From the NCBI GenBank assembly GCA_021806765.1, contig JAJZQR010000010.1:1-39503 (forward strand): a stretch of DNA of 39,503 bases. The letters run 5' to 3'. Every line of letters starts with the position of its first letter. Position 1 is the first letter of the stretch. The notes below the pieces were generated by a model that saw nothing but the letters and a program-made list of their open reading frames with translations, did no database searches and had not been told where the DNA came from. This DNA comes from Chloroflexota bacterium (GTDB lineage Bacteria; Chloroflexota; UBA6077). Shown piece by piece: positions 3,501-22,080 of this stretch. The translations under genes and the position numbers were made by a program.

Positions 3501-3974
3501 GGCCACCTCTCCCTGGCGACACCCCGAGAGGCAGATCAGACCGGCCGAGTGCTCCGCCAGGGTGGAGGGCGCCAGGGCCGCGTGGTTCTTGCCGTGGGCG
3601 AGCTGGGCGGCGCTGATCAAACGGCAGAGGTTGGCGTACCCCTGCCGGTCCCGAGCCAGCAGGGTCAGGTGGCTACCCCCCTCCAGGGTGACCTCCGCCC
3701 CGACGATGGCCCGTATCCCCTCCTGGAGGGCCACCTGCCAGAAGCGGACGGCCCCGTACAGCCCGTCGTGGTCGGTGATGGCCAGGGCCTCCATCCCCAG
3801 TTCCCTGGCCCGGGCCACAAGATCCTCTGGATGAGAGGCCCCGTCCAGCATGGAGTAGTTGCTGTGGCAGTGCAGCTCGACGTAATCCGAGTGATGAGTG
3901 ATGAGTGATGAGTGATGAGTGGCCAACCCCGCAGGGGTCGGAGACGCCGCCGGCCCGCGGCTTTCCTCAGGCAT
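588..3974 (-). CDS. dnaE2: Error-prone DNA polymerase III alpha, DnaE2/ImuC type
   Basis: C-family polymerase of 1128 aa, expected to do mutagenic translesion synthesis with ImuA and ImuB during the SOS response. An N-terminal PHP domain (ELHCHSNYSMLDGAS, ITDHDGLYG) starts near residue 32. The palm catalytic motif MPDIDIDF is present, followed by KMDLLGLRTLSVI, a helix-hairpin-helix region (SYVHGLGEAAL) and an OB fold at the C-terminus. PVDVNRS and ITDHDGLYG are signatures I associate with DnaE2 rather than replicative DnaE1. ATG overlaps the imuB stop (ATGCCTGA), indicating translational coupling. Three low-complexity insertions derived from DNA repeats are in frame: residues ~18-29 (LITHHS), ~490-540 (VGQGLVPCRQ to LSTQHS) and ~950-972 (GDKPLPY, LITHHS). 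All lie between conserved blocks, so the enzyme is probably intact. Confidence 0.93.
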   Translation of the reverse strand: MPEESRGPAASPTPAGLATHHSSLITHHSDYVELHCHSNYSMLDGASHPEDLVARARELGMEALAITDHDGLYGAVRFWQVALQEGIRAIVGAEVTLEGGSHLTLLARDRQGYANLCRLISAAQLAHGKNHAALAPSTLAEHSAGLICLSGCRQGEVARQLLTGSRSRAWRAAEDLLRIFGAESFWIELQHHLQPEDDWLCDELADLAARLGVGCVATNDVHYAAREGHRLQDILVCIKHRATLDVSAGLRRPNSEYHLKSGRQMAAIFRRYPGAVANSRVIAGQCDVDLNFKGYRFPGFQVPEEETPFSYLYRLCHEGARELYRPITPAVSKQLAHELEVIQKTGLAEYFLIVWDIMRYAREQGIPGQGRGSAADSLVAYVLGITKVDPLRHNLLFERFLSEEMTGMPDIDIDFSTNHREQILQYVYQKYGQQHTAMVCNVVTYRARNALREVGKAMGLPQELLDRFAKAVNRHSPSQLEAEMDALTTDEAVREGKTQNVGQGLVPCRQSQQQGQAAAESPAGAGSSPPQHSALSTQHSFMPQGLGEEESWRQLLDFCRQIEGFPRHLSIHVGGMLITATPLVEIAPLERATALGRVVVQFNKDDVEDMGLIKMDLLGLRTLSVIHDAQVMIRESRGIALDLDRISLDDPAVYDMLCEPDNIGVFQVESRAQSQTLPKMQPRSIEDLIVEISIIRPGPLQGNMVHPYLRRRQGMEEVTYLHPSLEPILAETLGVVLFQEQVIRVAVATAGFTPGEADLFRRAMNRHRSGAEMARIKARFLEGAQRNGVDLETAETIFKQLAGFASYGFCKSHAAAFAKTAYDTAYLKRYYAPEFYAAILNNQPMGFYSPEVVANDAKRHGIRILPVDVNRSRARCTVENMNIRLGFSYVHGLGEAALQRLEEERQHGPYRSLRDFLRRTRLSREAVENLIAVGAMDCFDRPRRAMLWEAGLPAGDKPLPYGHHSSLITHHSPLPLEDPPPPDLPAPTLYEATAAEYSLLGMSPGHHAVELFRGFLEDIGTVPCGRMAQLPKNLVIRVGGLVVCEQAPPTAKGHVFLTLEDETGLANVILRPQVYQRFRRVLQSNQIVLIEGVLQKQDRVTSLMGRKISSLPETAMTTAGNSKRPHRR
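1060..1118. repeat. GAGTGAT x4 plus GTAG palindrome inside dnaE2
   Basis: Four exact GAGTGAT heptamers (1060-1087) are followed at 1092 by GTAGGGCAGGGG-CTTG-TCCCCTGCC, a palindrome also found at 2449-2474 and 10981-11006. The composite is read in frame by dnaE2 as GDKPLPY then HHSSLITHHS. Confidence 0.9.
2356..2474. repeat. GAGTGCT x4 plus palindromes inside dnaE2
   Basis: Four exact GAGTGCT heptamers (2356-2383), a GAGCCGGCTC palindrome near 2395-2413 and an inverted copy of the GTAGGGCAGGGG palindrome (2449-2474). Read in frame by dnaE2; this ~120 bp accounts for an insertion of about 45 residues between conserved polymerase blocks. Confidence 0.88.
3889..3920. repeat. GAGTGAT x4 near dnaE2 N-terminus
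   Basis: Four GAGTGAT units and a partial fifth. On the coding (minus) strand they read ATCACTC and translate as the cyclic heptapeptide ITHHSSL just before the PHP domain. Confidence 0.9.
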
Positions 3975-5580: not shown

Positions 5581-5590
5581 GGGCACCACC

Positions 5591-5606
5591 TAGAACGTAT
5601 GTTCTA
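5591..5606. promoter_or_regulatory. SOS (LexA-type) operator of imuB-dnaE2
   Basis: TAGAACGTATGTTCTA contains GAAC-N4-GTTC, the operator core of Gram-positive-type LexA. It lies 11 bp upstream of imuB ATG and covers the predicted transcription start of the promoter at 5611-5639. It differs from the box at 22065-22080 by one base. Confidence 0.85.
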
Positions 5607-10524: not shown

Positions 10525-11667
10525 TCAGGCCCGGGCGTAGCGGGCTTCCCCGGGCAGCGGAACGCCGGCGACCTCCAGGCCCGGGCGACATAGCTGCAGG
10601 GCGGGCGCGGTAGGCGGGAAGCGGTAGAAGAGCAGGTCTACTTCCGCCTCCCTCAGCGGCGGCGCTAGCTTGTTCTTGGCTACCTGGATCAGGGAACGGC
10701 ACCCCATCACGTCCCGACCCCGCCGGATCCACTCCCTCCGCTCTATCCCCAGCCTCACCGAGGCGAAGAAGCGCAGGGCCTGACCCCCTTTCGAGGACTG
10801 AGGACTGAGGACTGAGGACTGAGCGCAGAGCGCTGAATCCTGGGCCCTGAGTGTTGAGTGCAGAGGGCAGAGGGCTGCCGGGAGCGCGGGCGTCCCGCCC
10901 GCCCGGTGCTGAGTGCTGAGTGCTGAGTGCTGTGCCTGTGCGTAGGGCCGAGGACGTAGGGCTGAGGGCTGAGTTGGAACGTAGGGCAGGGGCTTGTCCC
11001 CTGCCGCTCCTTCTGTCCACGTGGGCGCCGCCTCGGTGAGGAAGACGAAGGCGATCCCGTTCCTGTCCACCGCCGATACCAATCGCCGCAGCGCCAGCGA
11101 AAGTGATGAGTGATGAGTGATGAGTGATAAGGGTCGAGCACTCTCCTCGTCTCCCCGTCGCCCCGTCTCCCCGTCCCAGGTCCTCTGCAAATCGAGGATC
11201 ATCAGTTGGATCCCCCCGCTGCGGGCCAACCGGATGGCCATCTCCAGCCCCTGGAGATGGCCGTCCGGCCTGGCTACCAGCAGGGATTGAAAGTCCACCC
11301 CCTGGGCCCTCATCTGCTCCGGATCCAGCCTCCGGCCCAGATCTACGTAGGCGGCTACCCCCTCGGACCGCTGGCACTGGACCACCAGATGGGCAGCCAG
11401 GGCCTGCTTGCCCGAGGAGTCCGGACCGAAGATCTCGCTGATCCGGCCGCAGGGCAATCCACCGATCCCCAGGGCCTCGTCCAGGGCGAGGAAACCGGTG
11501 GGGATCACCTCCACCTCGGGCTGGAGGGCGTCCCCCAGCCGCACCAGCGCCCCCCGCCCCCACCGCCCCTCGGCATCAGCGAGGAGCTTGGCCAGGCGAG
11601 GATCGAGGTTGGTTCTGGGTTCTGAGTTCTGGGTTCTGAGTTCTGAACCCATTACAGCACTCAGCAC
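10525..11667 (-). CDS. imuA: RecA-like ImuA protein, repeat-filled DNA loops
   Basis: 380 aa with the RecA core: IPTGFLALDEALGIGGLPCG, Walker A GPDSSGKQ, YVDLGRRLDPEQMRAQGVDF, Walker B LMILDL, FFASVRLGIERREW and LIQVAKNKLAPPLREAEVDL. It aligns with RecA end to end, but Walker A ends in Gln instead of Thr/Ser and RecA's catalytic Glu (DAEH) is Gly here, so ATP turnover is doubtful. The regions matching DNA-binding loops L1 (residues ~163-188) and L2 (~218-291) consist of repeat-encoded peptide. It is the last gene of the SOS-controlled phage block; GTG 11667 lies 7 nt after the holin-like gene, with GGAGGGG at its end as binding site. ImuA with ImuB and DnaE2 forms the mutasome of many bacteria. 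A diverged phage recombinase is the alternative. Confidence 0.78.
   Translation of the reverse strand: MLSAVMGSELRTQNSEPRTNLDPRLAKLLADAEGRWGRGALVRLGDALQPEVEVIPTGFLALDEALGIGGLPCGRISEIFGPDSSGKQALAAHLVVQCQRSEGVAAYVDLGRRLDPEQMRAQGVDFQSLLVARPDGHLQGLEMAIRLARSGGIQLMILDLQRTWDGETGRRGDEESARPLSLITHHSSLSLALRRLVSAVDRNGIAFVFLTEAAPTWTEGAAGDKPLPYVPTQPSALRPRPYAQAQHSALSTQHRAGGTPALPAALCPLHSTLRAQDSALCAQSSVLSPQSSKGGQALRFFASVRLGIERREWIRRGRDVMGCRSLIQVAKNKLAPPLREAEVDLLFYRFPPTAPALQLCRPGLEVAGVPLPGEARYARA
10793..11006. repeat. Composite repeat in the ImuA L2 region
   Basis: In order: GAGGACT units (10793-10822), a GC palindrome near 10877-10905 (GCGGGCGTCCCGCCCGC), GAGTGCT x4 (10905-10932), and a GTAGGGCAGGGGC palindrome (10981-11006). 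Read in frame as LSPQSS, RAGGTPALP, HSALSTQH and GDKPLPY. Confidence 0.88.
11102..11177. repeat. GAGTGAT array plus GGGGAGACGGGG repeat in the ImuA L1 region
   Basis: Four AGTGATG-type heptamers (11102-11131), then CTCCCCGTCGCCCCGTCTCC (11151-11177). The second motif recurs at 17898-17915 and 18850-18872, at the ends of the scaffold-like and portal genes. Confidence 0.85.
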
Positions 11668-11668
11668 T
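11611..11668. repeat. TTCTGAG/GAGTGCT arrays at the imuA start
   Basis: GGTTCTG/AGTTCTG heptamers encode RTQNSEPRTN at the N-terminus; two GAGTGCT-type units contain the GTG start codon itself. Confidence 0.85.
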
Positions 11669-11674
11669 TCTTAA

Positions 11675-11932
11675 TTACCCCTCCACCGCCTTCTTTGCCC
11701 CGCTGTACAGCCCGCTGGCGCTCAGCCCCAACGCCAGACCCCACATCACCGCGTCCAGCCACACCTGGGATCCAGGCAACTGTTGGGCGGCCACGTACCC
11801 CACAGAGATCGCCAGCCCGCACCCGATGGCCAGCGGTGTCGCCCAGAGCGTATCGAGCCCAACCCTCTTCGCGGCCTCCACCAGGCCGATGATCAGTGGT
11901 ATCGCCAGGACCCCAGCGTACTCGGTAGGCAT
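11675..11932 (-). CDS. Holin-like small membrane protein
   Basis: 85 aa with hydrophobic segments around residues 7-20 (VLAIPLIIGLVEAA), 32-48 (TPLAIGCGLAISVGYVA) and 58-76 (WLDAVMWGLALGLSASGL), ending in a short basic tail (GAKKAVEG). Size, topology and position directly after an amidase fit a phage holin that permeabilises the membrane for the endolysin. GGGAGG 8 nt upstream supports ATG 11932, two codons after the amidase stop. There is no enzymatic motif. Holin families are very diverse, so the assignment rests mainly on context. Confidence 0.7.
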   Translation of the reverse strand: MPTEYAGVLAIPLIIGLVEAAKRVGLDTLWATPLAIGCGLAISVGYVAAQQLPGSQVWLDAVMWGLALGLSASGLYSGAKKAVEG

Positions 11933-11935
11933 CGC

Positions 11936-12733
11936 TCACACCTCCCCCTCTCGGTATCGTCTCACCAGATCCAGCAGCCGCTCCCCTGGGCACTCAGTGG
12001 CATTGCCGTCGGCCACCAGCTCGCCGTGGCCGACCACCGCCCGTCGCTCTACCCCGAATCTGCCCCTCAGAACGTCCAGGCGGCCCACCAGCGCCCTTTC
12101 CTGCACCTCGGTACCTTCCCATCCAGGCCCGGCATCTACAGCCAGGTTGTAGGCCCTCCTGTTCGCCCCACGGCACGCCCAGACCACATCCTCAGCAGGC
12201 CGCGTCACCCACACCCGCCCGCCCCTGGAGATTCGTTCGTGGTACATCAGACTGTAGCCGCCCTGCACCCCAGGCTCTTCTTCGTCCCAATCGGCGGCGA
12301 TGTGGGCCAGCGCTTCCCTGCGGTACAGCTCCACCGGGTCGTACCCCTCAGAGAAGGGCGTCCCCGATCCGTCCCAGTGCACCACCAGCAGCGAGATCTC
12401 CCCGACCTCCCGCAGATCCAGCCGGTTCTTCAGCTCCACCGGCAGCCTCCCTACCAGATCGAGAGCCGAGGACTGAGGACTGAGGTCTGAGATAGACGGC
12501 TCAGTCCTCAGTCCTGAGTCCTCAGTCCTGGCCATCGCCGCCGGCAGGAACAGCGTCACGTTCCCCGCCGGCGAGTACCACATCAGCCCCCGGTCGGTCA
12601 TCTGCACCACTGCCGCCTGGGTGCCCCATCCGAGCCCGTGCTCCTCCTCCACCGGCCGCCCGACCACCCCCGTCCCCAGCTCGGCAGCCACCCGCCGGAA
12701 GCCCTCAGTTCGGAACTCTGCCACCCTTCCCAT
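11936..12733 (-). CDS. N-acetylmuramoyl-L-alanine amidase (endolysin)
   Basis: 265 aa. The C-terminal two-thirds is an Amidase_2/PGRP domain: the first zinc His in LLVVHWDGSGTPF, GYSLMYHERISRGGRVWV, CRGANRRAYNLAVD, and VGHGELVADGNATECPG with the second His and the Cys ligand. It would cut peptidoglycan between MurNAc and the stem peptide, releasing particles with the adjacent holin. Residues 1-65 form a separate N-terminal region of unknown role. A repeat-encoded linker (TEDSGLRTEPSISDLSPQSS) lies exactly between the two parts. It overlaps the preceding gene by 29 nt. Confidence 0.85.
   Translation of the reverse strand: MGRVAEFRTEGFRRVAAELGTGVVGRPVEEEHGLGWGTQAAVVQMTDRGLMWYSPAGNVTLFLPAAMARTEDSGLRTEPSISDLSPQSSALDLVGRLPVELKNRLDLREVGEISLLVVHWDGSGTPFSEGYDPVELYRREALAHIAADWDEEEPGVQGGYSLMYHERISRGGRVWVTRPAEDVVWACRGANRRAYNLAVDAGPGWEGTEVQERALVGRLDVLRGRFGVERRAVVGHGELVADGNATECPGERLLDLVRRYREGEV
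12468..12530. repeat. Inverted GAGGACT arrays inside the amidase gene
   Basis: GAGGACT x2-3, a short spacer, then four CAGTCCT-type units: a hairpin read in frame as an interdomain linker. Confidence 0.85.
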
Positions 12734-12962
12734 CCCCCTTCTCAGCAGCCGCCAGCCGGCCGTTCCCGCCGATCGCCCTCACCGCGTCCACCAGGCGGGT
12801 CAGCGCCTCAGTGTTTCGCTGGACCACCTCCAACAGCATCTCCTTGTCAGCCCGCTCCACCTCCGTCTGCCGGGTCCGATCGGAGTTGAGCCACCTCACC
12901 ACCACGTAGGCCAGCACCACGCTGACCCCGCCGTTGATGGCCACCTGCGCCAGCTCCGACAT
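12705..12962 (-). CDS. Small membrane-anchored coiled-coil phage protein
   Basis: 85 aa from ATG 12962, with GGAGGTG 5 nt upstream; a GTG 15 nt earlier would put the binding site inside the gene. A single transmembrane helix (VAINGGVSVVLAYVVVRWL) is followed by a charged heptad-rich helix (TEVERADKEMLLEVVQRNTEALTRLV split over residues ~32-60) and a Gly/Lys-rich tail. This resembles XhlA-like haemolysin/holin-associated proteins next to endolysins. It overlaps the amidase start, so the two are coupled. Function is inferred from layout. Confidence 0.7.
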   Translation of the reverse strand: MSELAQVAINGGVSVVLAYVVVRWLNSDRTRQTEVERADKEMLLEVVQRNTEALTRLVDAVRAIGGNGRLAAAEKGDGKGGRVPN

Positions 12963-12982
12963 CCCCCACCTCCACACAGGAC

Positions 12983-13166
12983 TGAGCTATGAGGTCCGAG
13001 GACTGAGCCGTCCATCTCATCACTCATCACTCGTCCCTCGTCTCACTCAGTCCCCAGCACTCAGCACTCAGCACCCAGCACTCAGCACCCAGCACCCAGC
13101 ACTCAGCACCCAGCACTCAGCACCCAGCACTCAGCACCCAGCACTCAGCACCCAGTCCCCAGTCCT
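12983..13166. repeat. Long mixed heptamer region with 16 CAG-type units
   Basis: GAGGACT and CATCACT-type units (12983-13045) lead into an unbroken run of 14 CAGCACT/CAGCACC and two CAGTCCY heptamers (13055-13166), the longest array in the window. The run touches the TAG stop of the propeller gene. Confidence 0.93.
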
Positions 13167-15927
13167 AACACTCCACCAGCCGGCACTTCGCCACCGTCTG
13201 CACCGCCCCGCCCACCAGCTCCCCCAGTGCCTCCTCCAGCCCCTCGAACCACACCGTGTACACTAGGCCGTCCAGATCCTCGAAGCTCACCACCTCACGG
13301 GCCCTCGCCGCCCATAGCTGACGGCTCAGCTCCACCCCGCTGAGCGCCTCCACCGTCCCATCCAGCAGCCGCAGCGGCACCCCGCCCGCCGGGATCCCCT
13401 CGCAGCGCACATCCATCGACCACCCCCGCTTGGCCCCCACCGCCGGCGCGTACTCCAGCCGGATCCCCGTCAGCACCGGACTCTCCGCCCCGCCAGGCCC
13501 CGCTAGCTCCACCCGCCAGGAGAGCCGTCGGCAGCTCGACCCCTCCCCGAAGTCGAATACCCTCCCGGTGGACCCCTCCACGTCGGAGGTCCCGAGGCTC
13601 ACCCACGTCCCGGTCACGCAGTCCACCTTCAACAGGCCCACGGTCGGGGTCGCCGTCCCGGTCCCCGTCAGCACGACCTTCCACCGCAGCTGATCCCCGG
13701 GGTAGGCAAAGGCCAGCTCCACCCCGCTGGTCGCAGATTCCCAGCTCGCCCCGTCCGCGCTCAGGTAGAGCTGCAGGGCGCAGCCCGCCGGCATCGTCGA
13801 CTCGACCACCGTCATCGTCGCCCGGGTCACGGTCCCCGAGCCCGGCACCGGCAGCACCGAGGAGACGGCCTCCCCCGTCGCCGCCCACAGCGGATCGAGC
13901 CCCACGTAATCGGCGCCGATCTCGGCCGGGTTCACGCTCCCTCCGGGATACGAGGACCTGAGCCCGAGGTACAACTTCCCGTCGGGTCCCAGGTAATCGG
14001 CCCATCCCTCGGTTGCCACCGTCTCGATGGTCCTGGCCGCCTCGCTGTCCCCTGCAGCCGCCGTGTTGCTACCCACGTAGTCCCAGCTGCCGGTCCGGTG
14101 GTTCCAGATCCGGAATATCACCCCCGGCGCAACGGTCCCGGCGCTGTCCCCCCTCCCGTAGGCCACGCCCCTGGGGTGGATCCCCGCGGGGTTGAGGCCC
14201 GAGAGGTCGAAGACGAACAGCTCGTGGGCATACAGCCCCGCCCCCGCGCCTCTCTGCACGGCCGCGGCCCCATCGACACCCGACACCGCCGAGTAGTCGC
14301 CGGCGGAGAACTCCCCGGCGAAGGCGCCGGGGGAGCTGTTGGGGTTGGGTGAGGTGAGCTTGTAGGCCAGGTGGGGCACGGTCAGGTTGCCAGGCAGCTT
14401 CCCGGCGAAGGTCTGCCCGGGCATCCCCTTCAGCCTCACCAGGGAGTCCTCCGTCCTCCAGTCCGCCGTGGTGGCGGCCGGGTTGCACCTGGCCAGGCCG
14501 TCGAAGTCCTCCAGGTACTGGTAGCTCTCCGACCCGTCCAGGGCGTAGGACACGGCCACAGACTCGCCAACGCCCAGCGGCTGGTGGCTCACGCTCACCC
14601 TCCGCAGCAGCTTCGGCTGGCCGGCATCGCCCCCGTCTATGTCGCTAAGCTGGGCGACCCCGCTCACCTGCAGCTGCAGGGGATCCCTCCGGTAGATGGC
14701 CCCGTCCCGGGCCAGGAACAGCTCCCCCTGGTACACGCTCAGAGCCCCCACCGTCCCCGCCGTCCCAACCGTCGCGGGGGTGCTCCACCCGAGGCGGCAG
14801 GACTCCATCTCCGCGTGGCCGCTCCCCCCACCTACCACCATCACGGGATCCAGCACGACCGCCGCCGGCAGCTTGCACAGCACCGCCGCACCCTGGGTCG
14901 GGTGCTCGTACCCCACGTAGAGCCGGCCGCCGCACACCGCCAGCCCCCGCAACGCCCCCGGCACCACCACGCCCTGGTCGGCCAGGTCGTAGGCCTCGAC
15001 CAACCGTGAGCCGTCGAAGGCCCGCACCTTACCGCCCACGCCCGATCCACAGAACAGGAGGTTATCGAACACGGTCCACCCGGCAACGTAGTCATCCGAG
15101 AAGGCGGACACCTCGGTCCACTCCCCGGAGGCGCTCCGGCCGTCGTAGCAGAGGATCCTCCCCTGCGGACCGTTCCCGGCGTCGGAGGTGGCGACGAACA
15201 GCCGGCCGCCGTATACGGCCATGGCCTCCACACGGCCCTCCCGGGCACCGTGCAGCGCTGTGGCCGTCGTGCCGTCCCACTGGTAGACCTTCGCCTCTCC
15301 GGAGGGCATCCGGCACCCCAGGAACAGCCGCTGCACGCTCGCCTTCGCCGTCGCGTCCCACACCTCGCAGCTCGCCATGGCGGTGATCCCGGCCACCCCG
15401 GCCACGTCGAAAGCCGTGCTCCAACCCACGCCGTCCCGGACGAACACGCCTCCATCCGCGTCGCTGCCGGCGTACAGCTTCTCCCCGTGCCGGGCCAGCG
15501 ACCCCATCGCCGCCTTCCCGGTGTCCCAGGCCATCGTCCAGGCCGACCCGTCGAAGGAGTAGATCTTCCCGGAGGATCCCGCCAGCGCGAAGAGCCTCCC
15601 GAGGAACGCCTCCATGGCCACGAATCGGGACTCCGGAGAGCTATAGGAGAGCCCCAGGCCGGGCGCCAGGGAGAGCTGCCCGGCGGTCCCGATCTCGACG
15701 CCTTGCCCGCCCCTCCATCTCCCCGTGTCCCCGCTTCCCCGCGTCCCCGCGTCGGCCACGCGCTGCCCGTCTCCCCGCCGCCAGTCCGCCTGCGACCACT
15801 CCCGCCAGCCGAGTGCTGAGTTCTGGGTTCTGGGTTCTGAGTTCGCGCCTACGGCCGACCGGCGGTAGCTGCCGGGCTTCACCAGAAACCCCTGCCCCCC
15901 AATGCTCACGTGGTACCTGCCGCCCAT
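13165..15927 (-). CDS. Phage fibre/propeller protein, probable receptor-binding or tail protein
   Basis: 920 aa from ATG 15927 (GGAGG 4 nt upstream); frames reaching back to 16011 run through a repeat array and are probably not translated. Residues ~90-400 hold beta-propeller blades with recurring GRLFALAGSSGKIYSF, EKLYAGSDADGGVFV, GRLFVATSDAG, NLLFCGSGVGGKVRAF and GRLYVGYEHPTQGAAV, like Kelch/NHL repeats. The C-terminal ~450 residues are beta-rich, with a LamG- or discoidin-like look (VLTGIRLEYAPAV). Its position after the capsid genes and before the lysis genes, and its size, suggest a tail spike or fibre. Two repeat-derived insertions occur near the N-terminus (TQNSALG and a GTRGSGDTGRW segment). 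The TAG stop joins a heptamer array. Confidence 0.68.
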   Translation of the reverse strand: MGGRYHVSIGGQGFLVKPGSYRRSAVGANSEPRTQNSALGWREWSQADWRRGDGQRVADAGTRGSGDTGRWRGGQGVEIGTAGQLSLAPGLGLSYSSPESRFVAMEAFLGRLFALAGSSGKIYSFDGSAWTMAWDTGKAAMGSLARHGEKLYAGSDADGGVFVRDGVGWSTAFDVAGVAGITAMASCEVWDATAKASVQRLFLGCRMPSGEAKVYQWDGTTATALHGAREGRVEAMAVYGGRLFVATSDAGNGPQGRILCYDGRSASGEWTEVSAFSDDYVAGWTVFDNLLFCGSGVGGKVRAFDGSRLVEAYDLADQGVVVPGALRGLAVCGGRLYVGYEHPTQGAAVLCKLPAAVVLDPVMVVGGGSGHAEMESCRLGWSTPATVGTAGTVGALSVYQGELFLARDGAIYRRDPLQLQVSGVAQLSDIDGGDAGQPKLLRRVSVSHQPLGVGESVAVSYALDGSESYQYLEDFDGLARCNPAATTADWRTEDSLVRLKGMPGQTFAGKLPGNLTVPHLAYKLTSPNPNSSPGAFAGEFSAGDYSAVSGVDGAAAVQRGAGAGLYAHELFVFDLSGLNPAGIHPRGVAYGRGDSAGTVAPGVIFRIWNHRTGSWDYVGSNTAAAGDSEAARTIETVATEGWADYLGPDGKLYLGLRSSYPGGSVNPAEIGADYVGLDPLWAATGEAVSSVLPVPGSGTVTRATMTVVESTMPAGCALQLYLSADGASWESATSGVELAFAYPGDQLRWKVVLTGTGTATPTVGLLKVDCVTGTWVSLGTSDVEGSTGRVFDFGEGSSCRRLSWRVELAGPGGAESPVLTGIRLEYAPAVGAKRGWSMDVRCEGIPAGGVPLRLLDGTVEALSGVELSRQLWAARAREVVSFEDLDGLVYTVWFEGLEEALGELVGGAVQTVAKCRLVEC
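15811..15845. repeat. GAGTTCT/GGGTTCT array inside the propeller gene
   Basis: Five heptamers read in frame as SEPRTQNSALG. A CCCCGCGTCCCCG repeat (15715-15758), related to that in the portal gene, is read 20 codons downstream. Confidence 0.82.
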
Positions 15928-15931
15928 CACC

Positions 15932-16015
15932 CCTCCAGTTCTGAGTTCTGAGTTCTGAGTTCTGGGATCCCACTCAGAACCCAGAACCCAGAACCCAGAA
16001 CCCGTCATCACGTCC
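15932..16015. repeat. 84-bp palindromic heptamer element, copy A
   Basis: Identical over 84 bp to 16411-16494. Starts with CCTCCAG (the ribosome-binding site of the next minus-strand gene), then TTCTGAG x3, GGGATCCC at the centre, CCAGAAC x4, then GTCATCACGTCC. The arms can form a long hairpin. Confidence 0.95.
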
Positions 16016-16029
16016 TCAGTCCCCAGTCC

Positions 16030-16404
16030 TCACAGGTAGCTTGCCGCCCCGATCACCACGGCCACCCGGTCCGCCGCCACCGCGAACCCCACCACCTGCA
16101 ACACGCTCCCAACCCCGCTGGGGTACGTCGACTGGATCCCCCCCGGCGTGGTCAGGCTCAGGTACTCGGTCTCGCCCGGCGTCAGCCCGGCAAAGCCCCC
16201 CACCTCCCCCATCAGGTGCATCGACCCCACGTCCCCGCTCCTATAGGAGGCTGCCGCTATCCCAGCGGCCTCTATCGGGGCACCCGCATTCCCGCTGGCC
16301 CTCACCAGCTTCCCGGCGCTCCACCCCACCAGGTCACCAGCCTTCACGCTATCCCCGTACGGTACATCCGGCACCGTCAGACCACCCCTAACCAGCTTGC
16401 CCAT
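16030..16404 (-). CDS. Capsid decoration/head-fibre protein
   Basis: 124 aa, located directly after the major capsid gene. Beta-rich, with VPYGDSVKAGDLVGWSAGKL, a central MGEVGGFAGLTPGETEYL and a terminal GSVLQVVGFAVAADRVAV. This layout (residence on the particle surface, small trimer-like beta domain, final QxVGxAxxxxxV) is what I know from DUF2190-like capsid cement proteins. GGAGGTG 5 nt upstream fixes the ATG. The stop TGA belongs to a TGAGGAC heptamer. Confidence 0.68.
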   Translation of the reverse strand: MGKLVRGGLTVPDVPYGDSVKAGDLVGWSAGKLVRASGNAGAPIEAAGIAAASYRSGDVGSMHLMGEVGGFAGLTPGETEYLSLTTPGGIQSTYPSGVGSVLQVVGFAVAADRVAVVIGAASYL

Positions 16405-16410
16405 CCTTCA

Positions 16411-16494
16411 CCTCCAGTTCTGAGTTCTGAGTTCTGAGTTCTGGGATCCCACTCAGAACCCAGAACCCAGAACCCAGAACCCGTCATCACGTCC
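16411..16494. repeat. 84-bp palindromic heptamer element, copy B
   Basis: Perfect duplicate of 15932-16015. Its right end contains TGATGA on the minus strand, the stop region of the major capsid gene. Confidence 0.95.
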
Positions 16495-17380
16495 CCAACA
16501 CTCCGATCAGCTTCCCGCACCTCAGCTGGTTGAACAGCGCGAGGCCGCAGTACCACCGGATCCTGACTCTGCTCGCGTCCTTCGTCTCCAGCTGACCCAC
16601 GTCGATCACCTCGATCCCGCCGTTCTGCAGGCCCGACAGGGCCTCCTCGGCGGCGAAGCTCAGGGCGTAGATGCTCGAGCAGACGCTGCTCGTCCCCTGG
16701 GTCTCGGCATCGCTGATCCAGTCGCTCACCTCCACCGGGATCCCGTCGTAGAGCATCACCTGCCGGCCGTAGCTGCTCTCCCCCCGCTCCACGTAGTGGG
16801 CGCTCGCCTGCAGCAAGCTCTTCAGCTTCCGCCGGCTCCGCTTGCTCATCAGCAGCACGTCCGGCTTCCCGGCCTTCACCCTGTCGATCAGGTCGTCCAG
16901 CATGGCCGTGGTCAGGCTCGCCCCGTTGGCCCCTGCCGTCACGACCTGATCGACGTTGGTGATCAGGTTCTTGACCCCGTTGAAGGAGTTGGGGTCCGTC
17001 GCCGTGCTCCCGTTGACGAAGGTGTCCTCGAACTTCTGGGCCACGGCCTTCGACTTCTTGGCCACCTGGATGGCCCTCTGGTCCTGGACGTTGCTGGCCG
17101 TGCGCTGGATGAAGTTATCCACGTCGGCATCCCCGCCCAGGATGGCCAGGGTGGCCGACTGCTGGGTGAAGGTCGCCGCGCCCTCGGCCCAGGTGGCGTT
17201 GACCGCGTAGAAGTCCGCCGAGCCCAGGGTATTCTCCTGGACGTACTTGTAGCTGTTGCCCTCGATGGTCATGAAGGGCAGCAGCTGCAGGATCGGCGAG
17301 TCCTTGATGATCGTCTCGATGACCCCACGCTGGAGAACGTCCGTCGCCAGCTTGGCAGCCTCAGTAAGCAAAAGTGCCAT
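16487..17380 (-). CDS. HK97-fold major capsid protein
   Basis: 297 aa. The N-terminal arm (VLQRGVIETIIKDSPILQLLPF) and E-loop-like part (GNSYKYVQENTLGSADFYAV, WAEGAATFTQQSATLAILGG) are followed by a helical spine (RAIQVAKKSKAVAQKFEDTFVNG) and a P-domain/A-domain run (LDDLIDRVKAGKPDVLLMSKR, GIPVEVSDWI, RVRIRWYCGLALFN), the order expected for HK97-fold capsid proteins encoded without a delta domain. No protease gene is nearby and a scaffold-like gene precedes it, so assembly probably uses a separate scaffold. GGAGGTGAGGG precedes the ATG. Preceded and followed by heptamer arrays. Confidence 0.88.
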   Translation of the reverse strand: MALLLTEAAKLATDVLQRGVIETIIKDSPILQLLPFMTIEGNSYKYVQENTLGSADFYAVNATWAEGAATFTQQSATLAILGGDADVDNFIQRTASNVQDQRAIQVAKKSKAVAQKFEDTFVNGSTATDPNSFNGVKNLITNVDQVVTAGANGASLTTAMLDDLIDRVKAGKPDVLLMSKRSRRKLKSLLQASAHYVERGESSYGRQVMLYDGIPVEVSDWISDAETQGTSSVCSSIYALSFAAEEALSGLQNGGIEVIDVGQLETKDASRVRIRWYCGLALFNQLRCGKLIGVLGT

Positions 17381-17387
17381 CCCTCAC

Positions 17388-17537
17388 CTCCAGTTCTGGG
17401 TTCTGCGTTCTGCGTTCTGGGATCTGAGTTATGAAGGTTCAACCCTCGCTACTCATCACTCATCACTCATCACTCGTCTCACTCAGTCCTCAGTCCTGTG
17501 TCCTCAGTCCTCAGTCCTCAGTCCCTAGTCCTCAGTC
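17388..17537. repeat. Mixed heptamer arrays between capsid and scaffold genes
   Basis: TTCTGGG/TTCTGCG units (17393-17425), CATCACT units (17454-17481) and CAGTCCT units (17484-17537). The array touches the TAG stop of the scaffold-like gene and the binding site of the capsid gene. Confidence 0.9.
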
Positions 17538-17924
17538 CTACTCCCGTTTGAGCCCGTGCGCGATCTTCTCCAAGGGGCTCATCCCCTCGACGTTGGGACC
17601 CTGGCGAACCGGGTTGCCGGCCGGAACCTGGGCGGACGCCACTTCCGCCAGAGCTGCCGCCCTGGCCGCTTCGAAGGCGCGGCGGGCTACCTCCACCGAC
17701 TCATCCAGTTCCACGATGGTGGAACCCGCCACCAGCTCAGGCACCACTTTTCCGGCGTTCTCCGCCAGCAGCACTCGCCGGTGGGACTCCAGCCATCGGG
17801 TCCGGGTCTCTTCCACCTCCCCTCGCAGCCGCTCGATCTCGATCCGGGGGTCGGGGGCCTGGGGGGCGGTTGAATCCCCCTCGCCCAGTCCCCCCGTCTC
17901 CCCGTCCAGAATTGCCTCCTCCAT
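17538..17924 (-). CDS. Scaffold-like phage protein
   Basis: 128 aa from ATG 17924 (GGAGG 8 nt upstream; a GTG three codons earlier overlaps the binding site). Acidic and helical: IEIERLRGEVEETRTRWLES and ELDESVEVARRAFEAARAAA are likely coiled coils, and the C-terminus is basic and short (SPLEKIAHGLKRE), a usual capsid-binding tail in scaffolds. Position immediately before the major capsid gene supports a scaffold or capsid assembly role. No sequence family recognised. The N-terminal DGETGGLGEG contains a GGGGAGACGGGG repeat shared with the portal and imuA genes. Confidence 0.62.
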   Translation of the reverse strand: MEEAILDGETGGLGEGDSTAPQAPDPRIEIERLRGEVEETRTRWLESHRRVLLAENAGKVVPELVAGSTIVELDESVEVARRAFEAARAAALAEVASAQVPAGNPVRQGPNVEGMSPLEKIAHGLKRE

Positions 17925-17985
17925 GCTTCTCACCTCCTTTCGTTCCGCTACATCGCTGGTTGTCGAAGGCAGCGCCCTCGGCCTG

Positions 17986-18044
17986 GTAGTAACGACTTCA
18001 GTCGTTCGTCTCCCTCGTACAGAAACGACTGCAGCCGTTGCTCC
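17986..18044. repeat. GTAGTAACGACTTCAGTCGTT palindrome, copy 2 (degraded)
   Basis: Left arm intact, right arm diverged (AACGACTGCAGCCGTTGCTCC). It sits in the 171-bp gap between adaptor and scaffold genes, with a GGCAGGAGCCAGCTCCTAC palindrome at 18081-18099, which overlaps the adaptor stop. Confidence 0.8.
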
Positions 18045-18095
18045 GAGAGTAACTCGGTCCCCGAGGGCGACCTGATCGCCGGCAGGAGCCAGCTC

Positions 18096-18716
18096 CTACG
18101 GGGCAGCCACCAGCCTGCCGGTCCTGACCCTGGCTGTCCGCACCCGGATCCCCTTCTCGTACTGCTGCCGGTAGAGGACAGCGGTGGTCTCGGCCGGCCG
18201 TCCCGCACGCCCCTCGAATCGCTGCCGCTTGGCCTCCTCGGTGGACAGACTCTGGAGGACCCCGGCGCAGGCGAAGGCCAGCAGCAGGTCCTCGTCGGCG
18301 GCAGGCACCGTCGACGGATCCCCGTCGGCGTTCAGGTTCGCGTGGGGCGCCAGGTAGCGCACCCCAAGGGACAGCCCCGATTCCGTCGGGGCGGGCTGGA
18401 GGATCAGCCTTCCACCGTAGACCTCGTACCGCGATCCACCGGCGCTACTGTCCCAAAGGGGCGACTGGCAGTCGCCCTGGCCGGTCGCCCCTGTAACTCC
18501 CGTCACCGCCAGGCAGTCGGCCGGTAGGTCGTACTCCCCCTGTCCCGCCACGATGGTTACCGTGGTCTCCCGCTGCCTGGGGAGGGCGCGACCGTAGTCC
18601 CGTATCGCGTCGTTCAGCTGGAGGTCCAGGGCCGCGTCGCTCCAGAGGTAACCCTCGGCCGCGTTATCGTTTAACAGCACTCGCAGCGCCGCTCGCAGTT
18701 CCGCCAGAGTCGACAT
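18096..18716 (-). CDS. Head-tail connector/adaptor protein
   Basis: 206 aa. The N-terminal half has the connector pattern of gp6/gp15-like adaptors: LAELRAALRVLLNDN, YLWSDAALDLQLNDAIRDYGRALP, then TTVTIVAGQGEYDLPADCLAVTGV. The C-terminal half (DEDLLLAFACAGVLQSL, AVLYRQQYEKGIRV) is helical. Adaptors form the ring under the portal; position next to the portal gene agrees. GGAGG 6 nt upstream supports the ATG. A palindrome within the gene (18457-18495) encodes QGDCQSPLWD between beta strands. Confidence 0.75.
   Translation of the reverse strand: MSTLAELRAALRVLLNDNAAEGYLWSDAALDLQLNDAIRDYGRALPRQRETTVTIVAGQGEYDLPADCLAVTGVTGATGQGDCQSPLWDSSAGGSRYEVYGGRLILQPAPTESGLSLGVRYLAPHANLNADGDPSTVPAADEDLLLAFACAGVLQSLSTEEAKRQRFEGRAGRPAETTAVLYRQQYEKGIRVRTARVRTGRLVAAP
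18457..18495. repeat. GGGGCGACTGGCAGTCGCC palindrome inside the adaptor gene
   Basis: GGGGCGACTG and CAGTCGCCC form the palindrome, with a third arm GGTCGCCCCTG following. Resembles dispersed GTAGGGGCG-type elements and is read in frame. Confidence 0.7.
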
Positions 18717-18738
18717 AACGATCCTCCATGTGATTGAT

Positions 18739-18846
18739 GTAGGGCGGGGTCTTGTGTCCGCCGCCGGAACAAACAGGATGTACAGGATAGGCAGGATATG
18801 AAGACTTAACGGCAGACCCTATCCTGGAAATCCTGTCTATCCTGTT
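18739..18846. repeat. GTAG palindrome remnant and ACAGGAT inverted repeats
   Basis: GTAGGGCGGGGTCTTGTGTC (18739-) is followed by ACAGGAT/GCAGGAT units (18767-18798) and their complements ATCCTG (18821-18846). The unit is about 9 nt (ACAGGATNN), unlike the heptamers. It fills most of the 139-bp portal-adaptor gap. Confidence 0.75.
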
Positions 18847-18855
18847 CCTTCCCCG

Positions 18856-20274
18856 TCACCCCGTCTCCCCGTCCGTAGCCCCTGCCTCTTCGGCAATCCT
18901 CTGCATCTCCGCCTCCGGGTTCTCCTCCCCCAGCCGGTCCATGGCCGTGCGGCGGGACCGGAGTCCGGCCGACACCAGGGCCACGTTGTTGCGCACCTCG
19001 GCCTCGCTATCGGTGGGCAGCAGCGGTGGCCAGATCACCCTGGACCGGTAGGGAGCGAAGCCACCCAGCCCCTTCAACTCCGCGATCCGCAACAGGTACC
19101 GGTTGCGCCGCCGCAGTCCGGCGTTCCACCAGGCCCGCTTCCGCAGGGTCTTCTGGATCAGCGGCTGAAGCTCCGTCTCCAGCGCCACCCCGCTCAGTAG
19201 CCGGCCCGAGTCGCCGAAGGCCGTCTTGGGGGTTTCGGCCACGTCGTGAAGCGCCCTCATCACTCGCTCGACGTGCTCGCCGACGGTCGGGGCCTGCCCC
19301 CGCCACTCCAGCAGTTCCACCTCCGCCCCCTCCGGGATGTCCCACACCGTCCCCGGCCCCACCGCCAGGTTGCTGTGCTCGCTCACCCCCTTGAAGATCA
19401 CCGGCGGATCGCTGTGGAAGCGGATCACGTCGGACATGTCGCTCATCCGCTCGTTCAGCTCCCTGTTCAGGGGCACTACGTCCTTCAGGTCGGAGACGCC
19501 CCAGAACTCGTTGGCCGGCCGGGCGTTGGGGATATGGACGAAGGGGATAAACCCGTAGGGGTTAGCCGTGCGCACCGCTTCCCGGTCGCCCACCGTCAGC
19601 GCGAACTCCGTCGGCGTCCACTCCTCCGTTACCTCCACGACGGGACGCGGGGACGCGGAGAAGGCGGGACGCGGAGATATGGGGCCCTTCTCCGTGTCTC
19701 CGCGTCCCCGTGTCCCCGCGTCATCCCAACGCAGGGCGGCCTCCTCCGCCGGCAGCCGGTAGACCAGGTAGACGGAGAGCAGGGCTGAGGGATCGTCGCC
19801 GGCCCACCGGGGAAAGAAGGTGAAGGGGTCGATGTTCACCACCCGTATCCCCTCCGTCCCCTGACCCCCGGCCCCCGGCCCCCAGAACAGCTTGAACACC
19901 GTGTCCCCCAGGATCGCCCCGTTCAGGGCCCCCTGGACGTCCACTGCCTCCAGGTCGTTCTCCTCGTACACCCGGTAGAGCAGTTCCTCGGCGGCAGCCG
20001 CCCGGGCCTGCTCCTCTGGTGAGGGGCCGGCCGGCGGGACGGCGAAATTGATCCCCCGCCCCAGCAGATAGGAGACCCCCTTGTCCACGATGGCCCTGGC
20101 GTAGTTCAGCACCAGGTTGCTGCGACCCTGCCGCGGCTTAGCCCACTGCCGGCCGTTGTAGAACTCCAGGTACTCGGCGTAGCGGCGGAGCCGGGCCTGG
20201 TCGGCCGCGGCCAGGGCGTTGCCCAGGGTTGCCGCCGAGGGCTGGGTGGGGTTGGGCAGGGGGCGCAGCGCCAT
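18856..20274 (-). CDS. Phage portal protein (SPP1 gp6-like)
   Basis: 472 aa from ATG 20274, with GGGAGG 6 nt upstream, overlapping the previous stop by one base (TGATG). Portal features: YLEFYNGRQW and NLVLNYARAIVDKGVSYLLGRG near the N-terminus, a beta-rich middle (IRVVNIDPFTFFPRW, YGFIPFVHIPNARP), and the long stem/clip helices (PLNRELNERMSDMSDVIR, RVMRALHDVAETPKTAFG, LSGVALETELQPLIQKTLRK). The portal ring is the entry and exit gate for DNA and docks terminase. An in-frame palindrome of CGGGGACGCGG units (19639-19722) gives a ~28-residue insertion TRGRGDTEKGPISPRPAFSAS in a loop. Confidence 0.88.
   Translation of the reverse strand: MALRPLPNPTQPSAATLGNALAAADQARLRRYAEYLEFYNGRQWAKPRQGRSNLVLNYARAIVDKGVSYLLGRGINFAVPPAGPSPEEQARAAAAEELLYRVYEENDLEAVDVQGALNGAILGDTVFKLFWGPGAGGQGTEGIRVVNIDPFTFFPRWAGDDPSALLSVYLVYRLPAEEAALRWDDAGTRGRGDTEKGPISPRPAFSASPRPVVEVTEEWTPTEFALTVGDREAVRTANPYGFIPFVHIPNARPANEFWGVSDLKDVVPLNRELNERMSDMSDVIRFHSDPPVIFKGVSEHSNLAVGPGTVWDIPEGAEVELLEWRGQAPTVGEHVERVMRALHDVAETPKTAFGDSGRLLSGVALETELQPLIQKTLRKRAWWNAGLRRRNRYLLRIAELKGLGGFAPYRSRVIWPPLLPTDSEAEVRNNVALVSAGLRSRRTAMDRLGEENPEAEMQRIAEEAGATDGETG
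19639..19722. repeat. GGGACGCGGGGACGCGGAG inverted repeat inside portal gene
   Basis: CGGGACGCGGGGACGCGG and GGACGCGGAGATA units face complementary TCTCCGCGTCCCCGTGTCCC units around GGGGCCC. It is a long palindrome with 7-9 nt sub-units, read in frame. Confidence 0.82.
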
Positions 20275-20408
20275 CACAACCCTCCCGCCAGGAATAGGAG
20301 GAGGACCATGAACCCGATGAACAGCAGCAATCCCAGCAGGTCCTCCACCAGCTCCCAGCCCTCGTAGCTCACCTCTTCTGCCATCCTGATCTCGCCGTAC
20401 CTTCTCAC
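20274..20408 (-). CDS. Very small membrane protein of the phage block
   Basis: About 44 aa if GTG 20408 is the start (AAGGAG 10 nt upstream); in-frame ATGs at 20432 and 20384 are alternatives. The C-terminal half is one hydrophobic helix (LVEDLLGLLLFIGFMVLLLF), and the N-terminal part is charged (RRYGEIRMAEEVSYEGW). The stop overlaps the portal ATG. Possibly a holin- or spanin-like accessory; no family recognised. Confidence 0.5.
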   Translation of the reverse strand: MRRYGEIRMAEEVSYEGWELVEDLLGLLLFIGFMVLLLFLAGGL

Positions 20409-20513
20409 CCTTTCGGATCTCCTTTCAGCCATCGATAGCCCGTGACTCAGAAGCCATAGGTCGTGCTTCATCCTTCGCCTTCCGTGGGATTACCTTTTGG
20501 ACCTAACCCCCTA

Positions 20514-20590
20514 CCCCCTTCCCCACGGGGGAAGGGGGAGCCCTCATTACTCATCACTCGTTACTCATCACTCGTTACTCATTGCCCGCC
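20514..20590. repeat. CCCCCTTCCCC palindrome and GAGTAAC/GAGTGAT array at terminase end
   Basis: CCCCCTTCCCCACGGGGGAAG (20514-) is a hairpin. 20546-20584 holds alternating CATCACT and CGTTACT heptamers, read by the terminase gene in the stop-containing direction: its TGA (20570-20568) is one of the heptamers. Confidence 0.88.
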
Positions 20591-22049
20591 GTCCCGTGGC
20601 CCGCCGGACGCCGGCCACCCCTGCCGCCTCCACCGCCAGGGCCGCCGACATCAGGAAATCGTCGTGGCCTCGCTCGGGCGGGACGTAGAAATCCATAGCC
20701 TGGTTGGCCCCCACGGCGTAGCGAGCCTGTTCCATCTGGAGCCAGAACCCCCGGCTTTCCGGGGAGCCGTCCTCTCGATACATCTTGAATCGACCGGCGT
20801 TGACGGCCCCCAGGAAGTCGTAGGCCAGCTTCGACTTGCTGGGCGCGGAGAAGACGAAGGGGACCACCACCTGCCGGCCCAGGGCCGAGGCCAGGAAGCC
20901 GGACACCCCGGCCCCCACGCCGGTGGCGTCCACCACCACCTTCCGGCACTCCCACACGTTCCGCAGCAGGTCCAGCATCTGGGAGTACTGGTCCCGGTGC
21001 TTCCGGCCCGTCCAGTAGTAGTGCTCCACCACCTTCAGCCGCGGTTCCAGCACCAGATCGGAGATGGTGGACCAGTCCAGTTCGGCCACGGTGATGACGG
21101 TGGAGTCCTTGCGGGGCTTCAGGGAGCGGAGGGCGGCGTCGGCCGCCTCCTCGTCCTCCCCCGCCAGATCGATCCCCGCCACATACTCCCTGCCGGATAC
21201 CGGAAGGTGGCAGCGGGGGTGATCGCCCTGCATCTGGGCCCGCTGCTGGTCGCTCAGGAAGCCCGAGGCCCCGGCCAGCGTCTCCAGGCAGTACTGGGTC
21301 CGCAGGATCGGATGATCCGCGCCTAGGCGGGCGATCTCCCCCTCCACGTAGTGGCCGTAGTCCGGGTTGAAGGCGGCGACCCGCTGCCAGTCGTACTGGA
21401 AGTGGCGCCGCACCCCGTCCCTGGCCTCCAGGGCCAGGTTCAGCTGCTTCTGCTCCTCCAGCAGGGTGTCGGCGGTCCACGAGGTGCCGTACAGGACGGT
21501 GGTGACGTTGGTGGTGGCGCCCATGGGGCGGAACTCCTTGGCGTACTTCTCCCGACTAACGTCCTGGGCCTCGTCCACCTCCAGCAGCAGGTGGGCTGTG
21601 GCTCCCACCACGTTGCTGGACTCCTCGGCGGAGAAGAACATCACCGAGGCTTTTCCCAGGGTCATCATGTAGCCGTAGCTAGACCCCCACCGCCCCCGGT
21701 TCCAGGGGTTGTCGAGGACCTGCCCCAGCCGTAGCTTGGAGTTGACGATCTGGGGCTTGAAGGTGGGCGCGCACTTGACGATGTTCCCTCCCCTCCGCTG
21801 GAACAGGTTCAGGAGGAACAGCTCCAACTGGGCGCTCAGCTCGTTCTTGCCCGCCTGCCTGGCCATCATCACGGTGAAGGTGAGTCCTTTCCGGTGGAGC
21901 ACCGAGTCCACGATCGCCCGGGCGGGCTCCAGCTGGTAGGGACGCAGCGGCCTGCCCGCCACGTAGCGGCTGAAGAGGGCGGGGTCGGTGAGCAGCCGTT
22001 TGAGCAGGGTGTGGTAGCGATCCTCTCCATGGCGGCCCAGGGCCTCCAC
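20568..22049 (-). CDS. Phage terminase large subunit (TerL)
   Basis: 493 aa, the DNA-packaging motor. The N-terminal ATPase has adenine/Walker A region MARQAGKNELSAQLELFLL, Walker B LLLEVDEAQD and the coupling region YGTSWTADTLLEEQ. The C-terminal RNase H-like nuclease has the first Asp in AGIDLAGED, the second in VVVDATGVGAGVSGFL and the third in GHDDFLMSAALAV. All key residues are present, so it could be functional. GTG 22049 lies only about 12 nt from TATAAT, so the message is nearly leaderless. First gene of the phage block and directly behind an SOS box. The last residues (MSNE) come from a heptamer array. No small terminase gene is visible. Confidence 0.9.
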   Translation of the reverse strand: MEALGRHGEDRYHTLLKRLLTDPALFSRYVAGRPLRPYQLEPARAIVDSVLHRKGLTFTVMMARQAGKNELSAQLELFLLNLFQRRGGNIVKCAPTFKPQIVNSKLRLGQVLDNPWNRGRWGSSYGYMMTLGKASVMFFSAEESSNVVGATAHLLLEVDEAQDVSREKYAKEFRPMGATTNVTTVLYGTSWTADTLLEEQKQLNLALEARDGVRRHFQYDWQRVAAFNPDYGHYVEGEIARLGADHPILRTQYCLETLAGASGFLSDQQRAQMQGDHPRCHLPVSGREYVAGIDLAGEDEEAADAALRSLKPRKDSTVITVAELDWSTISDLVLEPRLKVVEHYYWTGRKHRDQYSQMLDLLRNVWECRKVVVDATGVGAGVSGFLASALGRQVVVPFVFSAPSKSKLAYDFLGAVNAGRFKMYREDGSPESRGFWLQMEQARYAVGANQAMDFYVPPERGHDDFLMSAALAVEAAGVAGVRRATGRRAMSNE

Positions 22050-22060
22050 CTCCCATCCCC

Positions 22061-22066
22061 ATTATA
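22061..22066 (-). promoter_or_regulatory. -10 element of the phage block
   Basis: Perfect TATAAT on the minus strand, overlapping the last bases of the SOS box. The start site would be near 22054, leaving a leader of about 5 nt. The -35 is weak (TAGAAG with an 18-bp spacer at best). Confidence 0.6.
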
Positions 22067-22080
22067 GAACGTTTGTTCTA
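22065..22080. promoter_or_regulatory. SOS (LexA-type) operator of the phage block
   Basis: TAGAACGTTTGTTCTA, core GAAC-N4-GTTC, 15 of 16 bases identical to the imuB operator. It overlaps the -10 of terL, so LexA would exclude polymerase. Confidence 0.83.

What the first reader, a model, noticed from the sequence alone, without database searches (positions are those of the whole stretch)
10525..22080. SOS-controlled capsid/lysis operon that ends in a RecA-like ImuA
Seen: twelve same-strand genes run from an SOS box through terminase, portal, adaptor, scaffold, capsid, decoration, fibre, lysis genes and finally a RecA-like protein, with short gaps and several overlaps. Known: ImuA acts with ImuB and DnaE2 in damage-induced mutagenesis, and phage-derived gene transfer agents package host DNA and can be tied to the SOS system. 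Inference: one damage signal would make particles, lyse cells and, through ImuA, support mutagenic or recombinational handling of DNA. ImuA at the end of a capsid operon is an arrangement I do not know from any described system.
Basis: partly seen in the sequence, partly recalled or inferred. Interest (0 to 1): 0.85.

Follow-up and report, generated by a model that had tools for sequence, protein, structure and literature searches.

The report
SOS-switched capsid operon ending in imuA
A bacterium of the phylum Chloroflexota carries a short set of virus-capsid and cell-lysis genes behind a DNA-damage switch; relatives keep a similar capsid gene that has descended with its hosts, so it looks like a tamed virus particle, and in this branch a gene of the mutation machinery (imuA) sits at the end of the set.

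Summary
The operon is real. On the minus strand (22078-10525) a perfect SOS box running into TATAAT precedes terminase, small membrane protein, portal, SU10-type adaptor, scaffold, capsid, decoration, beta-propeller tail protein, membrane protein, amidase and membrane protein; imuA starts 7 bp later. No integrase was recognised; host genes flank it. The window's only other perfect box precedes imuB-dnaE2. The capsid gene matches strongly in 43 of 400 Chloroflexota genomes. For 35 genomes its tree shares 14 of 32 splits with RecA's (shuffles: at most 2), with dN/dS 0.06-0.20. SOS boxes lie within 1 kb upstream of it in 16 of 80 genome loci (composition-matched palindromes: mean 0.75), but in none of 11 Thermomicrobia-titled loci and none of 80 IMG/VR loci. 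I read it as an anciently domesticated podovirus-like particle, SOS-induced here: a candidate gene transfer agent. Packaging and transfer are inferred. The ImuA link is confined to this lineage: 7 of 29 relatives share an exact contig length with capsid or terminase hits, and no sampled genome scored like the family.

The parts
22067..22078 (-). SOS (LexA-type) box GAACAAACGTTC, followed directly by TATAAT
20568..22049 (-). large terminase, 493 aa
   Evidence: PHROG 4.5e-6; motifs kept in 26 aligned homologues
20274..20471 (-). small protein with a hydrophobic stretch, 65 aa, function unknown
   Evidence: ORF, no family; hydrophobic stretch by eye
18856..20277 (-). portal protein
   Evidence: SPP1_portal 2.3e-28, PHROG 2.6e-48
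18096..18716 (-). head-tail adaptor (SU10 type)
   Evidence: SU10_adaptor 6.9e-20
17538..17933 (-). probable scaffold
   Evidence: PHROG scaffold 0.007; position; homologues in relatives
16487..17380 (-). major capsid protein
   Evidence: PHROG 2.8e-77, NCBIfam 228 bits
16030..16404 (-). probable decoration protein
   Evidence: position; weak PHROG of unknown function 2e-4
13165..16011 (-). beta-propeller tail protein, nozzle/fibre-like, 948 aa
   Evidence: model and fold matches
12705..12977 (-). small membrane-type protein, 90 aa, possible holin
   Evidence: ORF and position; no family above its cut-off
11936..12733 (-). N-acetylmuramoyl-L-alanine amidase (endolysin)
   Evidence: Amidase_2 7e-8, PHROG endolysin 1.8e-6
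11675..11932 (-). small membrane-type protein, 85 aa, possible holin, homologues in blocks of relatives
   Evidence: no family; homologues in L001, L002, L006, L031
10525..11667 (-). ImuA (RecA-like), last gene of the operon
   Evidence: Pfam RecA 9.2e-56; tree with imuB-linked ImuA
5593..5604 (-). second perfect SOS box, directly before imuB
3967..5589 (-). ImuB (Y-family polymerase-like)
   Evidence: Pfam IMS 4.1e-28
588..3974 (-). DnaE2 (error-prone polymerase)
   Evidence: NCBIfam error-prone DNA polymerase, 1132 bits, cut-off 939

Best explanation
The block is a domesticated, podovirus-like particle operon inherited with the chromosome: a candidate gene transfer agent of Chloroflexota. 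(1) DNA damage removes LexA from a box at the -10 and the operon fires (box shown; regulation inferred). (2) Scaffold, capsid, portal and decoration proteins build a head (families shown, two weakly; assembly inferred). (3) The terminase, with its ATPase and nuclease motifs kept, fills the head with DNA; as no integrase or replication gene was recognised, mostly host DNA (inferred). (4) Adaptor and propeller protein close the head and bind recipients (inferred). (5) Amidase and small membrane proteins lyse the cell (inferred). (6) In this lineage imuA is read from the same operon, while imuB-dnaE2 have their own SOS box; ImuA most likely joins ImuB in the mutasome of damaged cells (inferred).
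For: Capsid gene strong in 43 of 400 Chloroflexota genomes and under purifying selection, as are terminase and portal (dN/dS 0.06-0.20 in six comparisons). Capsid and RecA trees share 14 of 32 splits for 35 genomes, shuffles at most 2; Mantel 0 of 5000. SOS box upstream of the capsid gene in 16 of 80 genome loci, mean 0.75 for matched palindromes; 9 of 18 such boxes with TTGAC just before, background 1.9%. Nearest phage proteins only 43% (capsid) and 32% (terminase) identical among 50,697 phage records. No listed integrase match within 20 kb of the capsid gene in 48 genomes (list cut). Lysis gene, terminase and portal present.
Against: No particle or packaged DNA is shown. 64 of 80 genome loci have no perfect box within 1 kb upstream of the capsid gene (5 of these have one before terminase or portal), none of the 80 IMG/VR loci has one, and none of the 16 positive loci bears a Thermomicrobia-type title (11 of 80 do). 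357 of 400 genomes lack a strong match. Tree agreement is partial: 18 of 32 splits differ, Spearman 0.39. In many loci the block is split or cut by contig ends. MAG contigs can be misbinned.
Confidence: 0.6

Rival explanations
1. PBSX-like element: a host-maintained, SOS-induced particle that lyses the producer and kills or sacrifices cells; it may package host DNA but does not deliver it.
For: SOS box, lysis gene, vertical descent fit equally; PBSX packages 13.4-kb chromosomal pieces and is said to act like a tailocin (PMC12946183, passages read).
Against: No tail tube, sheath or tape measure recognised, so no tailocin-type killing device is apparent; a propeller tail protein is kept.
Confidence: 0.2
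2. A small phage, prophage or capsid-carrying satellite that still moves between hosts.
For: Only 43 of 400 genomes have a strong match; IMG/VR holds at least 489 contigs with a relative of the capsid gene.
Against: Gene tree follows hosts; no listed integrase nearby; the longest of the 80 IMG/VR contigs kept is 27,246 bp; no close phage.
Confidence: 0.13
3. A decayed prophage remnant without function.
For: Blocks are split in several genomes.
Against: dN/dS 0.06-0.20, open frames, terminase motifs kept, SOS boxes.
Confidence: 0.05
4. About imuA alone: it is an incidental neighbour. The block and an imuA-imuB-dnaE2 region came to lie side by side, and imuA serves only the mutasome.
For: imuB-dnaE2 lie 5 kb further on the same strand with their own SOS box; imuA lies next to imuB elsewhere in Chloroflexota (L172, L288, L290); the nearest block-bearing genomes show no such ImuA.
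Against: The link seems to recur on four long contigs (19,091, 74,146, 41,964, 52,458 bp) whose ImuA are only 51-70% identical to the window's; the capsid gene also lies by imuB/dnaE2 in two distant loci (L057, L029).
Confidence: 0.45

Closest known systems
Alphaproteobacterial gene transfer agents (RcGTA, Caulobacter GTA)
   Same: Phage-derived head genes in the chromosome, descent with hosts, lysis gene; Caulobacter GTA helps survival after DNA damage through recombination in recipients (PMC9632790, passages read).
   Different: Podovirus-like with no recognised tail tube or tape measure; SOS-type boxes at the operon itself instead of GafA/RogA-type control; other phylum; imuA in the operon. 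RcGTA's tail type is recalled.
PBSX of Bacillus subtilis
   Same: DNA-damage-induced, host-maintained, packages chromosomal DNA (PMC12946183, passages read).
   Different: PBSX has a full tail (recalled) and acts like a tailocin; here only head, adaptor and one propeller-type tail protein were recognised; Chloroflexota.
SU10 / epsilon15-type podoviruses
   Same: Capsid, portal and adaptor families; propeller protein with matches to P22 gp10, Sf6 gp8 and T7 tail chains.
   Different: No replication or integration gene recognised; chromosomal, follows host phylogeny; phage capsids at most 43% identical.
ImuA-ImuB-DnaE2 mutasome
   Same: All three genes within 11 kb on one strand; ImuB with QLGLF and a RecA-N-terminus-like stretch by eye, as described for mycobacterial ImuB (PMC11791113, passages read).
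   Different: imuA is separated from imuB-dnaE2 by epimerase and transketolase genes and lies 7 bp behind a capsid operon; P-loop GPDSSGKQA.

Membership tests
Gene transfer agent (GTA) | phage-derived structural genes in the chromosome, with terminase and portal | tested here: met
Gene transfer agent (GTA) | no integrase or own replication genes | tested here: inconclusive
   none recognised among the window proteins searched or read; no listed integrase within 20 kb of the capsid gene in 48 genomes, but the list was cut and many contigs are short
Gene transfer agent (GTA) | long vertical inheritance with the host | tested here: met
   14 of 32 splits shared, shuffles at most 2; dN/dS 0.06-0.20; agreement partial
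Gene transfer agent (GTA) | particles carry mostly random host DNA | not testable with these tools
   needs particles
Gene transfer agent (GTA) | DNA delivered to recipients | not testable with these tools
   needs transfer assay
SOS regulon | LexA-type box in the promoter of the operon | tested here: met
   window box before TATAAT; 16 of 80 relatives' loci, mean 0.75 for matched palindromes; 0 of 80 IMG/VR loci
SOS regulon | induction by DNA damage | not testable with these tools
   no expression data
ImuA | RecA-type domain, and clade with imuB-linked ImuA | tested here: met
   Pfam RecA 9.2e-56; one clade with L172, L288, L290, support 0.97
ImuA | curated NCBIfam ImuA model | tested here: not met
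   34 bits, cut-off 150; the RecA model is not met either (187, cut-off 325)
ImuA | operon with imuB and dnaE2 | tested here: not met
   imuB lies 4.9 kb on, behind other genes and with its own SOS box
Tailocin / PBSX-like killer | tail tube, sheath or tape measure | tested here: inconclusive
   none recognised in the block proteins searched; PBSX itself also has a head (recalled)

The most novel reading that the evidence does not exclude
Chloroflexota inherited a short-tailed gene transfer agent before Dehalococcoidia, Thermomicrobia-like and UBA6077-like lineages parted, and in at least two of these it is driven directly by LexA. In the window's lineage the particle operon also makes the mutasome subunit ImuA, so one damage signal ties export of host DNA and self-lysis to error-prone or recombinational handling of DNA in cells that do not lyse or that receive the DNA.
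Probability: 0.25. Interest if true: 0.92.

Novelty: new variant of a known kind. Interest (0 to 1): 0.76.

Why it matters
Few gene transfer agents are known: the 2023 framework named three families, of Alphaproteobacteria and a spirochaete (PMC9953437, passages read). A capsid gene set that has followed a bacterial phylum, with SOS boxes at its promoters in two of its groups, would be a further independent domestication, would place particle production directly under the damage response, and would offer largely uncultured lineages a route of gene exchange. Cultured carriers of the capsid gene exist (Thermalbibacter longus CFH 74404, L063; Thermomicrobium sp. CFH 73360, L080), so packaging can be tested, although these two show no perfect box upstream of the capsid gene.

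Tried and rejected
Own-genome search: no genome held for the window. ImuA profile in IMG/VR: 46 loci, the best 33% identical over most of the query, none of this subfamily. ImuA profile over 400 phylum genomes: best score 248 bits; 11 of the 30 family members scored 358-489 bits when left out of the model, RecA at most 247, so no family member is seen there; only up to five candidates per genome were scored, all in the 29 genomes, with the same outcome. Copy numbers rest on the same limit. Palindrome ranking without composition matching: GAACN4GTTC came 17th upstream of the capsid gene behind GC-rich palindromes, and 125th (3 or fewer of 22) upstream of terminase; it was first upstream of portal (5 of 25). 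With composition matching it is first upstream of the capsid gene; against the density of boxes elsewhere in the same loci, 2.4 were expected and 16 loci (18 boxes) seen. IMG/VR loci: no GAACN4GTTC upstream of the capsid gene, and no replacement operator that I could name. A sensor-kinase family near many blocks was judged a common family, not a part. DnaE2 in 48 block genomes: near the capsid gene only in G002 and G003 among the rows listed. Literature: ImuA + prophage + capsid, 0 papers; gene transfer agent(s) or domesticated prophage with Chloroflexi, Dehalococcoid or Chloroflexota: 25, 4, 7 and 0 papers, of which 15, 4, 7 and 0 were listed; no listed title or opening of an abstract was on such a system. 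Searches were seen as listings only, apart from the papers named as read in passages. The library lacks bioRxiv and most subscription papers.

Full report
What is there. The window (39,503 bp, 65.6% G+C) looks like a piece of a Chloroflexota chromosome: of the eight best capsid relatives whose name gives an organism, seven are called Chloroflexi or Chloroflexota and one Sphingomonadaceae, and the block is flanked by DnaE2, ImuB, transketolase halves, an epimerase, a sensor kinase and cell-wall genes (some named by eye). On the minus strand from 22,049 to 10,525 run twelve genes: large terminase, small membrane protein, portal, adaptor, probable scaffold, major capsid protein, probable decoration protein, a 948-residue propeller protein, a small membrane protein, amidase, a second small membrane protein and a RecA-like protein. 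The last gap is 7 bp. The two perfect GAACN4GTTC sites lie directly before the terminase gene, where the box runs into TATAAT, and directly before imuB. imuA has no perfect box of its own; the nearest upstream is that of the capsid operon, 10.4 kb away. No promoter-like site was found between hol2 and imuA, but that scan performs no better than shuffles.

Distribution. A capsid profile over 400 Chloroflexota genomes matches 47: 43 at E 3.4e-89 or better and 4 weakly or in pieces; 42 of the 43 show one match, with up to five candidates scored per genome. In the class of the nearest genome held, 9 of 29 match, 8 strongly, all candidates scored. A scan of one genome for each of 84,980 species gave 183 relatives, of which the best 80 were kept. 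Nearest phage capsids are 43% identical and the nearest phage terminase 32% (50,697 records); capsids of 35 Chloroflexota genomes are 42-94% identical to each other.

Inheritance. For 35 genomes with both genes in hand (of the 48 handles used), the capsid and RecA trees share 14 of 32 splits; label shuffles share 0.17 on average and never more than 2 (1000 shuffles). Seven groups that I chose after seeing the trees, among them UBA6077-like, Thermomicrobia-like and Dehalococcoidales-like ones (names recalled or from record titles), are monophyletic in both. The Mantel correlation is moderate (Spearman 0.39, Pearson 0.62, 0 of 5000 permutations), and 18 splits differ. dN/dS is 0.06-0.20 in six comparisons: capsid four times, terminase and portal once each. 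This is what a kept, inherited element shows, and not what I would expect of a phage that changes hosts often.

Control. In 16 of 80 genome loci a perfect SOS box lies within 1 kb upstream of the capsid gene; 96 palindromes of like composition (GAAC included) average 0.75 and the next best reaches 3. By the density of such boxes elsewhere in the same loci 2.4 were expected. Nine of the 18 boxes have TTGAC in the 30 nt before, against 1.9% background, and 12 of 18 are followed directly by TA; of 35 boxes elsewhere, 8 and 11 do, either orientation counted. Printed side by side (26 hand-picked boxes), many Dehalococcoidia-type loci read TTGACA, box, then a TA-rich stretch: a promoter with the box between -35 and -10. 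Five more loci have a box within 450 bp upstream of terminase or portal. In the window's own group (window plus 8 genomes) six of nine have a box before the first recognised block gene: window, G001, G004, G005, G049, G076; in the stretches fetched for G006, G099 and G216 there is none (G216's contig is only 4.4 kb). Against: none of the 16 loci bears a Thermomicrobia-type title although 11 of the 80 do (one of the 11, L060, has a box 386 bp before portal), and none of 80 IMG/VR loci has a box upstream of the capsid gene. So direct SOS control is supported for two groups and not for the whole phylum.

ImuA. It falls below the NCBIfam cut-offs of both ImuA and RecA, but it forms one clade (support 0.97) with three Chloroflexota ImuA that lie beside imuB, separate from the ten RecA used. 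Its P-loop reads GPDSSGKQA where RecA reads GPESSGKTT. ImuB carries EQLGLF followed by a RecA-N-terminus-like stretch (by eye), like the clamp-binding and ImuA'-binding motifs of mycobacterial ImuB (PMC11791113, passages read). Of 29 other members of this ImuA subfamily, 7 lie on contigs whose exact length recurs in the capsid or terminase lists with an overlapping source: 19,091, 74,146, 41,964, 52,458, 9,539, 6,323 and 5,064 bp; of the 8 on contigs of 9 kb or more, 5. Conversely, of 12 other contigs of 9 kb or more with a listed capsid or terminase at least 80% identical, 5 show it. Equal long lengths can hardly be chance; the shortest two are less certain and imply a closer spacing than in the window. 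The nearest genome held, G001 (capsid 82%), shows no such gene, and its block ends with the hol2 homologue and then a convergent gene. So the link is probably real but confined to one lineage. Two distant loci have the capsid gene next to mutasome genes: L057 (capsid, SOS box, imuB, dnaE2) and L029/L303 (block, C-terminal remnant of imuB, dnaE2 68% identical to the window's). Two of 80 is only somewhat above what chance neighbours would give (about 0.4, my estimate).

Reading. The best account is a particle operon that Chloroflexota domesticated long ago, SOS-induced in the window, most like a gene transfer agent, with imuA as a lineage-specific addition. Packaging of host DNA, delivery, and any role of ImuA in either are inferred.

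Noticed in passing
L303 13245-15503 (G003; same contig as L029): Behind a capsid block lies a dnaE2 68% identical to the window's, preceded by only a C-terminal remnant of imuB, although the capsids are only 52% identical.
   Followed up: partly
window 1059-1089, 2356-2386, 5168-5269, 10793-10932, 13044-13162, 17393-17539 and others: Many short tandem arrays of 7-base units between and inside genes, also inside imuA, imuB and dnaE2, where they add low-complexity inserts.
   Followed up: no
L020 3606-3866; also L035 3681 and L079 7197: A small helix-turn-helix protein (Pfam HTH_23; PHROG late transcriptional activator, tested for L020) is the first gene behind an SOS box before portal: a possible second regulatory step.
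   Followed up: partly
L020 10702-12681 and ten homologues: A tail protein whose model joins a baseplate-hub fold and a lectin-like propeller.
   Followed up: partly
IMG/VR loci L081-L160: At least 489 IMG/VR contigs carry a relative of this capsid gene; the 80 kept are at most 27,246 bp long and may be host chromosome pieces counted as viruses.
   Followed up: no
window 31994-32827: ORF that by eye resembles aminoglycoside N-acetyltransferases of the AAC(3) type; not searched.
   Followed up: no
L289 (G091) 1096-2073: A RecA-like protein that is sister to the window's ImuA subfamily (support 0.92), with no imuB match in the 3.5 kb held.
   Followed up: no
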